Part shown: one piece after another, positions 20,393 to 21,865 of the stretch
Numbering within the stretch: the first letter of the stretch is position 1
How the letters are laid out: the number at the start of each line of letters is the position of its first letter
Source: Tupaia tana
Lineage: Eukaryota > Chordata > Mammalia > Scandentia > Tupaiidae
Length of the DNA stretch: 64,000 bases
NCBI GenBank assembly: GCA_026018925.1
Contig: JAKSZU010000008.1
Location: 11,387,626-11,451,625, forward strand
Direction: 5' to 3'
Notes under the pieces: model-generated
Databases searched by the model: none
Told to the model about the DNA's origin: nothing
Seen by the model: only the letters and a program-made list of their open reading frames with translations
Position numbers and translations under genes: made by a program

Positions 20393-21865
20393 TTAAAAAT
20401 CCAATGAATGGGCCAGAGAGGGGGAGCAGGAAAGGGAGGAGACCGTTCCAGGCAGACCATTGGCGAGTTGTTTTCTACGTTGTTGGAGAGATCGTTGGAG
20501 TTGATATATGTTGTCATGAACGGTGCCGGACTTGTTGGCGTAAAAGCAGCGTTCCTGTAAAGCAAGACAGAGACCTCCCTGTTCTTCCAGGAGGAGATTT
20601 AAACCTCGTCTATTTTGAAGAACCACCTCAGCCGGGGAATCTAGTTGGTCTGAGATAAGACCCTCAGTGACTTGGCGTAATAACACTAGCCAGTGGAGCC
20701 GGCAGCTGTAGCTGTGGTTAGGGAAACATAAAGGCTGAGAGTTTTGAAATTTAAGAAGGATAGCTCGGGCTAACGTTTGCCAATCAGATGGTATGAGCCA
20801 GCCCTCGGTGATAGCTTCAACTATAGCTAAGGTATATGGAGCAGTAGCTCCGTATTGGGCAACTGCTGCCTTAATCTCTTTTACCATAAACCTACTGTGA
20901 CGGCGCCAAACCTGTCCTTGGGAATCTATAGTTTCCATAACAGAGAATGTCTCAAAGTCTGTCGTATGTGATCCCTGAACTAGTTTTGTTTGTTTGTCTG
21001 TATTGGTTTTTAGTTTCTCGAATTGTGATACAAAAGGTATCTGCATGGATAATATTAAACCCACAATGTAGAAAATGCTATATGCTATGTAGACTCTTTT
21101 GCTATATCTCTGCATCAGTAACAACATAAACACATGCAGTGGAATAAGGTTGATGATAAACACATAACCACCCCAAGCAGAGACCATATAGAAATATGAT
21201 AAACAGCAGCACATTGTCCAAAAAACTGACCCAGTTTTTGACTCATTTTTCTTTGGCTCTTGTAGAGACTTAAGGTTGTTTTTATTTTTTAGTTTTTTGG
21301 ATATTTTGGGTTTTGTCTCACCTTCAGGGCTTTTAACTTCTTCCTCACTATCTAGGGAAATAATATCCTCTCCCTGTTCTTTTTCAATTTTAGAATCCAT
21401 GGTTAGATCTGAGGCGGCTATAGCCTCCTCCTGGGGTTGATCATTTCGTATGATCTGCTCTTCCTTAGTGACCATAGCGACAATTTTTGGTTCACTGGTG
21501 TGGAGCCTGAGAATTTCGTCTATTAAGTTCCAGTACAAAAAAGTAGTCACGGGAACTTTTTCTGGGCCGAATGTGGTATAACAACCTTTTAAAGCGTCCC
21601 GTACTCTTTTCCACATTTTCTCATCTATGGTTCCTTCTTGAGGGAACCATGGACAAACTTCTTTTAAGAAATCAAAAAAGGAGAGCAACTGCTTAATCTT
21701 AATCTTAACTCCCTGTGTCTTGAGGGCTTCTTTCAAGCCCTGAACAAATAATTCGTGCTGACTAAGCTTTTGTTCGTGCTGACTAAGCTCTTGTTCGTGC
21801 TGACTAAGCTTTTGTTTGTGCTGACTAAGCTCTTGTCCCACTATTACCCTTATTACTTGTCCCAT
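20393..21865 (-). CDS. Gag(MA)-STT3A-Gag(CA)-Env(TM) fusion frame, 490 codons
   Basis: One uninterrupted frame from ATG at 21865 to TAA at 20395-20393. Residues 1-3 (MGQ) give a myristoylation-type Gag start. Residues 10-38 are a four-fold heptad-like repeat built on LSQHEQ. Residues ~39-120 are betaretroviral matrix (around CPWFPQEGT). Residues ~120-209 are an acidic then lysine-rich linker. Residues 210-279 read as the cellular oligosaccharyltransferase catalytic subunit STT3A. Residues ~306-370 are the capsid N-terminal domain (QYGATAP, DWQTLARA). From ~376 to 468 it is the ectodomain of a type-D-like Env TM subunit, including the conserved helical region; the loop cysteines are C433 and C440, but the expected adjoining third cysteine is F441. 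Nucleocapsid, protease, polymerase and Env surface subunit are missing. The start is chosen because it lies at the Gag position after primer site and leader. Whether protein is made is unknown. Confidence 0.85.
   Translation of the reverse strand: MGQVIRVIVGQELSQHKQKLSQHEQELSQHEQKLSQHELFVQGLKEALKTQGVKIKIKQLLSFFDFLKEVCPWFPQEGTIDEKMWKRVRDALKGCYTTFGPEKVPVTTFLYWNLIDEILRLHTSEPKIVAMVTKEEQIIRNDQPQEEAIAASDLTMDSKIEKEQGEDIISLDSEEEVKSPEGETKPKISKKLKNKNNLKSLQEPKKNESKTGSVFWTMCCCLSYFYMVSAWGGYVFIINLIPLHVFMLLLMQRYSKRVYIAYSIFYIVGLILSMQIPFVSQFEKLKTNTDKQTKLVQGSHTTDFETFSVMETIDSQGQVWRRHSRFMVKEIKAAVAQYGATAPYTLAIVEAITEGWLIPSDWQTLARAILLKFQNSQPLCFPNHSYSCRLHWLVLLRQVTEGLISDQLDSPAEVVLQNRRGLNLLLEEQGGLCLALQERCFYANKSGTVHDNIYQLQRSLQQRRKQLANGLPGTVSSLSCSPSLAHSLDF
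21029..21238 (-). other. STT3A: Captured host STT3A coding segment
   Basis: About 70 codons (residues 210-279 of the fused frame) read as the polytopic part of STT3A that follows the catalytic DNE loop: KTGSVFWTMCCC, AWGGYVFIINLIPLHVF, RYSKRVYIAY and ILSMQIPFV are the recognisable words. STT3A rather than STT3B is indicated by FWTMCCC and by RYSKRVYIAY. Compared with the human protein as I remember it, only about two residues differ. STT3A is the ER-membrane catalytic subunit that transfers N-glycans cotranslationally. Only two or three membrane spans are present and the catalytic WWD region is absent, so no enzyme activity is expected. Flanking residues on both sides do not match STT3A, so the edges are sharp. 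Confidence 0.88.
21756..21843 (-). repeat. 21-bp tandem repeat at the Gag N-terminus
   Basis: Units close to CTGACTAAGCTCTTGTTCGTG (plus strand; 21 bp) repeat about four times. They encode a heptad-like LSQHEQx array that inserts a short polar helix between the myristoylation site and the matrix core. Confidence 0.85.

What the first reader, a model, noticed from the sequence alone, without database searches (positions are those of the whole stretch)
21029..21238. A retrovirus that captured part of a host STT3A mRNA
Inside a young provirus, about 70 in-frame codons between matrix and capsid read as the membrane-spanning part of STT3A, the catalytic subunit of the ER oligosaccharyltransferase. 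The sense matches the viral frame, the edges are sharp, and the match to the human protein as I remember it is nearly perfect. Capture of cellular mRNA between Gag segments is the known route to acutely transforming retroviruses, but I know of no case with an N-glycosylation enzyme. A membrane-embedded STT3A piece in a Gag fusion might localise to the ER or act as a dominant-negative on glycosylation of viral Env. That functional idea is pure inference.
Basis: partly seen in the sequence, partly recalled or inferred. Interest (0 to 1): 0.95.

Follow-up and report, generated by a model that had tools for sequence, protein, structure and literature searches.

The report
Retroviral family carrying captured STT3B gene
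A mammalian endogenous retrovirus copied part of the host's spliced STT3B messenger RNA (an enzyme that puts sugars on proteins) in frame into its Gag gene and then spread to well over a hundred places in the genome, probably with help from more complete relatives.

Summary
The segment is real but lies on the minus strand and is STT3B, not STT3A. It sits in an unbroken 490-codon Gag-like frame (MA, STT3B, part of CA, part of env TM) inside a 3.4-kb provirus with paired LTRs and a 6-bp target duplication. Over 172 comparable bases it matches the host's own STT3B exons at 171, with two host introns absent: captured mRNA. The same genome holds at least 150 copies. An older "long" form carries 360 nt of STT3B with shared junctions where readable. 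Two STT3B-less relatives show the uninterrupted site (GAATTAATA|TCACAATTAG), so the insertion cost Gag no bases. Of 150 STT3B copies none has a listed RT-thumb hit within 6 kb; of the 78 best linker hits 24 do, none of them followed by a listed STT3B. LTR identity to the window: 97% in one such relative, 87% in another. Best reading: one template-switching capture, then spread in trans as a defective satellite; a later in-frame deletion of about 354 nt gave the window's lineage. A small sample not chosen by STT3B shows no purifying selection on it, so a passenger is likeliest; ER-anchoring of Gag remains possible. Host-gene capture by ERVs is known; no report of this one turned up in the searches made.

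The parts
19405..19410 (.). target-site duplication ATGCCC (3' side of the provirus)
   Evidence: identical hexamer at both outer LTR edges
19411..20072 (-). 3' LTR, 662 bp
   Evidence: 9 mismatches in 616 aligned bases against the 5' LTR, plus 46 gap columns
20073..20085 (-). purine-rich tract GAGAAGGGGGATA next to the 3' LTR (polypurine tract by position)
   Evidence: read from the sequence; role recalled
20393..21865 (-). open frame of 490 codons: MA, linker, STT3B, CA piece, env TM piece
20459..20653 (-). env transmembrane-subunit piece (Pfam TLV_coat, residues 405-469)
   Evidence: E 4e-25
20750..20908 (-). capsid N-terminal piece (Pfam Gag_p24, residues 320-372)
   Evidence: E 4.9e-14
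21029..21238 (-). captured STT3B coding segment, 70 codons (frame residues 210-279), crossing two host exon-exon junctions
21509..21757 (-). betaretroviral matrix domain (Pfam Gag_p10, residues 37-119)
   Evidence: E 2.6e-24
21909..22136 (-). leader array of 26-nt repeats, each with self-complementary ends GGACG...CGTCC
   Evidence: the stretch folds better than 200 of 200 shuffles
22175..22193 (-). primer-binding site TGGCGCTCGAACAAGGGAC (tRNA-Lys-like, recalled)
   Evidence: position directly after the 5' LTR
22196..22811 (-). 5' LTR, 616 bp
22812..22817 (.). target-site duplication ATGCCC (5' side of the provirus)

Best explanation
The window holds one young copy of a defective, satellite-like endogenous betaretrovirus family. 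Shown: spliced host STT3B sequence (360 nt, 120 codons, in the long copies) lies in frame in the gag linker just before capsid, between bases that are adjacent in two STT3B-less relatives, with no Gag bases lost or duplicated; copies that keep the edges share the same junctions; the family has at least 150 copies, none with a listed RT-thumb hit within 6 kb, while STT3B-less relatives with related LTR and leader carry more Gag and an RT-thumb hit downstream. Inferred: reverse transcriptase switched from viral RNA to a co-packaged STT3B mRNA and back (2 nt, TA, are shared at the 3' junction); the chimera lost NC, pol and most of env and was packaged and copied in trans by those relatives. A later in-frame deletion of about 354 nt removed linker and the first 50 STT3B codons, giving the window's lineage. 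The STT3B piece (three hydrophobic stretches) is most likely a passenger, tolerated because it keeps the reading frame.
For: Host gene with introns: exons of 66 and 100 nt with AG/GT borders, then the exon with MQIPFV. Identity to host 171 of 172 bases in the window copy, 172 of 172 in 3 of 50 copies (L008, L041, L049). 150 copies scored, all matched, of 306 candidates; 37 of 150 lie in open frames of 450 codons or more. Junctions: 14 long copies printed; of 12 measured, 11 have the left junction at 150 nt and one (L031) at 151 with an extra T. Empty site in L061 and L062. LTR identity to the window 97.3% over 338 nt (L061) and 87.2% over 468 nt (L062). RT-thumb hit within 6 kb: 0 of 150 STT3B copies; 24 of the 78 best linker hits, 0 of those 24 followed by a listed STT3B. 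Stepwise markers: codon 55 Thr in 6 of 13 readable long copies (as in P0034/P0038; the host's own codon 55 was not readable), Ile in 28 of 28 short copies; codon 38 Met in 12 of 28 short copies. LTR divergence 9 of 616 in the window, K2P 0.058-0.1045 in 12 long copies.
Against: Hit lists are capped at 150 (of 306, 1173, 734, 1315 and 383 candidates), so absences near a copy are partly absences from a list: of 150 linker hits 77 had neither STT3B nor CA-C listed, and of 150 matrix hits 61 had no listed STT3B within 1.5 kb; one of nine places fetched by matrix position had no STT3B (L069), so STT3B-less matrix-bearing copies may exist. 5 of 10 long copies examined keep more capsid than the window does. 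L040 lost both capture edges. The helper role is inferred from sequence alone. The upstream host exon with LWNQGAG was not found in the host stretches read, so the left edge was not set against its exon. Matrix core is present in L030 and L039 but not in L027, L061, L062, so the parental lineage is not fully resolved.
Confidence: 0.82

Rival explanations
1. The captured STT3B membrane segments are functional for the element: they anchor the Gag-like protein in ER membranes (as a signal sequence does for the Gag of mouse IAP elements, recalled) or disturb the oligosaccharyltransferase, and so were kept in frame.
For: The capture is in frame on both sides (360 nt), the later deletion is in frame (118 codons by count), 37 of 150 copies keep frames of 450 codons or more, three hydrophobic stretches remain. 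Pairwise dN/dS among 28 short copies is 0.49 for STT3B and their distinct changes are 14 N, 9 S, 0 stops, but 27 of the 28 come from the STT3B hit list, which biases both.
Against: In 8 copies chosen by matrix position the distinct STT3B changes relative to host are 17 N, 5 S, 1 stop, against a neutral expectation of about 0.69, 0.26, 0.05; 14 long copies give 33 N, 10 S, 1 stop. Among 28 short copies, shared and private changes have the same N:S ratio, 61:30 and 124:61 over the four Gag-STT3B pieces. One stop codon in CA is shared by at least two copies. Most of the enzyme, including WWDYG (seen in P0034; its catalytic role recalled), is not in the capture.
Confidence: 0.12
2. The capture followed the classical route of oncogene transduction: a provirus near STT3B was read through, the transcript was spliced, and recombination with a second viral RNA restored the 3' side. 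This differs from the best explanation only in the route.
For: It is a described route for host-gene capture (background passages of PMC4299795), and it also gives a spliced insert.
Against: The left edge joins viral sequence to the inside of STT3B coding sequence, the right edge lies inside an exon, and Gag bases are neither lost nor duplicated, which two template switches explain more directly. Not decisive.
Confidence: 0.2
3. A LINE-1-made processed STT3B pseudogene landed in a provirus, which then amplified.
For: It would also be intronless.
Against: The insert is an internal fragment with no poly(A) and no target duplication beyond an ambiguous TA at the junction, judged against the empty site.
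Confidence: 0.02

Closest known systems
Crocodilian ERVs with captured KIT-ligand (CrocERV29) or nectin3 (CrocERV31), PMC4299795 (passages, and one section, seen)
   Same: LTR-bounded endogenous retroviruses in several copies that carry spliced host mRNA; the nectin3 lineages lost env
   Different: There the insert lies between pol and env or replaces env, and purifying selection was reported; here it is an internal piece fused in frame inside Gag, with no selection seen in a small sample
ERV-Hako with SUSD6 or SPHKAP 3'-UTR pieces, PMC11905727 (passages, and one section, seen)
   Same: Mammalian group II ERV carrying a fragment of a host transcript, with 5-6 bp target duplications; defective forms spread
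   Different: Non-coding 3'-UTR pieces, in a handful of named human copies (and a platyrrhine form); here coding sequence in frame in Gag and at least 150 copies in one genome
Acutely transforming retroviruses with gag-onc fusions (recalled)
   Same: Cellular mRNA fused in frame to gag, loss of viral genes, need for a helper
   Different: No growth-promoting gene; germ-line family; most of the enzyme is missing

Membership tests
Defective endogenous retrovirus with captured host mRNA | paired LTRs with target-site duplication | tested here: met
   exact 6-bp duplications as printed also in 5 of 12 long copies (L027, L028, L034, L037, L038)
Defective endogenous retrovirus with captured host mRNA | insert is spliced host mRNA | tested here: met
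   two introns absent; 171 of 172 bases identical to host exons
Defective endogenous retrovirus with captured host mRNA | loss of viral genes in the capture-bearing element | tested here: met
   Pfam finds only MA, CA and TM pieces in the one long frame between the LTRs, with no NC, pol or SU match; 0 of 150 STT3B copies with a listed RT-thumb hit within 6 kb
Defective endogenous retrovirus with captured host mRNA | mobilised by a helper | not testable with these tools
   candidate relatives found, activity not testable
Betaretrovirus-like (class II) ERV | Gag_p10 matrix and Gag_p24 capsid | tested here: met
Betaretrovirus-like (class II) ERV | pol phylogeny | not tested
   no pol found in the window element; relatives' pol was located but not read
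Acutely transforming retrovirus | captured gene promotes cell growth | not testable with these tools
   STT3B is a glycosylation enzyme; only a membrane part is present
LINE-1 processed pseudogene | poly(A) tail and target-site duplication at the insert | tested here: not met

The most novel reading that the evidence does not exclude
The STT3B membrane segments give this Gag a new address: a retrovirus turned into an intracellular element partly by borrowing ER membrane anchors from the host, and the in-frame history (capture, then deletions) reflects that use. The short lineage kept three hydrophobic segments while losing linker and capsid parts.
Probability: 0.1. Interest if true: 0.85.

Novelty: new member of a known kind. 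Interest (0 to 1): 0.62.

Why it matters
It is an unusually complete record of host-gene capture by a retrovirus: empty site, first capture with intact junctions, later deletion and a young copy all lie in one genome, beside relatives that could have mobilised it. That makes the mechanism of capture, usually inferred from single oncogenic viruses, readable base by base. It also suggests that a captured fragment with no evident benefit can be carried to at least 150 copies, which bears on how often 'captured' implies 'useful'. If the segment does anchor Gag in the ER, it would be a new route from virus to intracellular element.

Tried and rejected
STT3A: rejected (places on C264 that I take for STT3A match much worse). 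Single odd provirus: rejected. Relatives elsewhere: none with both Gag and STT3 domains among the 120 listed of 2214 proteins; none in viral contigs, where 33 stretches matched a pattern but none encoded a relative. Purifying selection: pairwise dN/dS among 28 short copies was 0.49 for STT3B, 0.48-0.69 for the other Gag pieces and 1.19 for the TM piece (25 copies); among long copies 0.75 for STT3B. 27 of the 28 short copies (all but the window) come from the STT3B hit list, so the STT3B figure is biased. Naming the host: a mitochondrial cytochrome b piece gave no near-identical hit, best 91% (full-length records fall outside the tool's length limits), so the host is reported only as a mammal. 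An early note said at least three introns; only two are directly seen (corrected). The first LTR-pair script gave a pair for 2 of 13 loci and was redone with hand-set starts for 12. In one search a first exon join was misaligned; it was redone. In one search the wrong codon (54) was tallied; codon 55 is. Literature: 'STT3B' with 'endogenous retrovirus' gave 1 paper, off topic by its listing; 'STT3B, retrovirus, gag, capture' gave 3, off topic by listing; further searches were made; only open-licence PMC papers are held.

Full report
OBSERVATION. The + strand of 21029-21238 does not read. On the minus strand the segment lies in an unbroken frame of 490 codons, 20393-21865. Pfam finds betaretroviral matrix (Gag_p10, residues 37-119), STT3, capsid N-terminus (Gag_p24, 320-372) and env TM (TLV_coat, 405-469) in that order. 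The 70 residues match human STT3B best (136 bits, 68 of 70 identical by my count of the alignment; three STT3A chains 86-88 bits).

THE PROVIRUS. The LTRs are 19411-20072 and 22196-22811, with 9 mismatches (8 transitions) in 616 aligned bases and 46 gap columns. The outer flanks are the same hexamer, ATGCCC. A tRNA-Lys-like primer site follows the 5' LTR, and a purine tract precedes the 3' LTR (names recalled). The one long frame between the LTRs shows no NC, pol or SU match.

CAPTURED mRNA. The window's own genome is held (G000, 2.95 Gb). Its STT3B gene, on contig C397, shows ordered exons. The captured segment runs through a 66-nt exon and a 100-nt exon and into the exon with MQIPFV, with AG/GT borders where readable. 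Two introns are thus missing from the provirus. Of 172 comparable bases 171 are identical; the one change is codon 38, Val to Met. Three of the 50 copies compared are identical to host over all 172. Part of the host gene reads N and was not compared.

A FAMILY, NOT A SINGLE PROVIRUS. The segment has 150 scored matches of 306 candidates in the genome, the window's included; 3 of 150 have a stop inside it, and 37 of 150 lie in open frames of 450 codons or more. A search with flanking STT3B sequence found a longer form: the Gag linker ...EHxELI, then LWNQGAGLL...KSVKTGSV...QIPFV, then SQLEKLK and capsid. In 12 long copies measured, the left junction lies at the same point, 150 nt before the window's segment in 11 and 151 nt in one. 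Together with the 210 nt this gives 360 nt, 120 codons. The right junction is the same in the window, the short copies and the long copies shown that are not disrupted there; L040 has lost both edges. The window's form arose by deletion of linker plus the first 50 STT3B codons, 118 codons by count from the 68-residue linker and the 150 nt.

THE EMPTY SITE AND THE RELATIVES. Two STT3B-less copies read GAATTAATA directly followed by TCACAATTAG (L061, L062). The insert sits exactly between these, with a shared TA at its 3' edge, so no Gag base was lost or duplicated. LTR identity to the window is 97.3% over 338 nt for L061 and 87.2% over 468 nt for L062, and both have a matching leader; the 26-nt repeats were counted in L061 (leader matches). 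Of 150 linker hits, 22 are followed by a listed STT3B hit, 51 by capsid C-terminus/NC, 0 by both and 77 by neither. Of the best 78 linker hits, 24 have an RT-thumb hit within 6 kb, L061's and L062's places among them, and none of these 24 is followed by a listed STT3B; of 150 STT3B copies, 0 have one. Of 150 matrix hits 89 have a listed STT3B hit within 1.5 kb and 61 do not. All these lists are capped at 150. Five of 10 long copies examined keep more capsid than the window. The facts fit a defective satellite with helpers; helper activity itself is inferred.

ORDER AND AGE. Codon 55 is Thr in 6 of 13 readable long copies, as in P0034 and P0038, and Ile in 28 of 28 short copies; of 8 matrix-chosen copies 7 have Ile and 1 Thr. 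Codon 38 is Met in 12 of 28 short copies, in 1 of 14 long copies and in 0 of 8 matrix-chosen ones. LTR pairs differ by K2P 0.058-0.1045 in 12 long copies (for L029, L030 and L035 much of the LTR is not covered, and L039 has an extra LTR between matrix and STT3B) and by 9 of 616, K2P 0.015, in the window. With 2.2e-9 per site per year, a mammalian average seen in a passage of PMC13297096, that is roughly 13-24 and 3 million years. The host's own rate is unknown and LTRs may run fast.

FUNCTION. Three hydrophobic 19-residue stretches remain in the window's STT3B piece. The capture and the later deletion are in frame, which hints at a coding role. Against it: in 8 copies chosen by matrix position the distinct changes are 17 N, 5 S, 1 stop, close to neutral expectation; 14 long copies give 33, 10, 1; the 28 short copies give 14, 9, 0. 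Among the 28 short copies, shared and private changes have the same N:S ratio (61:30 and 124:61 summed over four pieces). The STT3B figures of the short copies are biased, since 27 of 28 came from the STT3B hit list. The matrix-chosen sample is small and comes from ranks 99-135 of its list. I therefore favour a passenger, without certainty, and leave ER anchoring as a minority reading.

KNOWN OR NEW. ERVs with captured host mRNA are known: KIT-ligand and nectin3 in crocodilians (PMC4299795) and SUSD6/SPHKAP 3'-UTR pieces in ERV-Hako (PMC11905727). No paper on STT3B capture turned up, and no protein with both domains was among the 120 hits listed. It is a new member of a known kind, notable for its copy number, its in-frame position in Gag and the surviving empty site.

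Noticed in passing
window 21909-22136 (-): The leader between primer site and gag is a tandem array of 26-nt units, seven with an exact GGACGGCAGAGAATCGTCC (ten in relative L061). Unit ends are self-complementary; the stretch folds better than all 200 shuffles (z -3.27), mostly by units pairing with each other. Possibly an amplified packaging element.
   Followed up: partly
window 19411-19436 and 22196-22221: The LTR end next to the primer site itself contains a primer-site-like stretch (GTGGCGCCCGAACC in the 5' LTR, one base different in the 3' LTR), as if an old primer site had been absorbed into the LTR.
   Followed up: no
window 19624-19788: 37- and 46-nt tandem repeats within the LTR; 46 gap columns separate the two LTRs.
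   Followed up: no
window 19307-19410 and 22812-22900: By eye the provirus inserted into a tRNA-like SINE; repeats of part of it recur nearby.
   Followed up: no
window 8871-9037 (+): U4 snRNA-like sequence (Rfam RF00015, 74.8 bits), 167 nt against a 138-position model; probably a pseudogene.
   Followed up: no
L061, L062: These STT3B-less Gag relatives lack the matrix core, joining the N-terminus straight to the linker, whereas the window's lineage has it; recombination among subfamilies is likely.
   Followed up: partly
L039 4088-4749: A complete LTR-like match lies between matrix and STT3B in this copy, suggesting a nested or recombinant provirus.
   Followed up: no
G000: The genome holds many betaretrovirus-like Gag and RT-thumb matches (150 scored of 1173 and 383 candidates), in several groups with near-identical members.
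   Followed up: no
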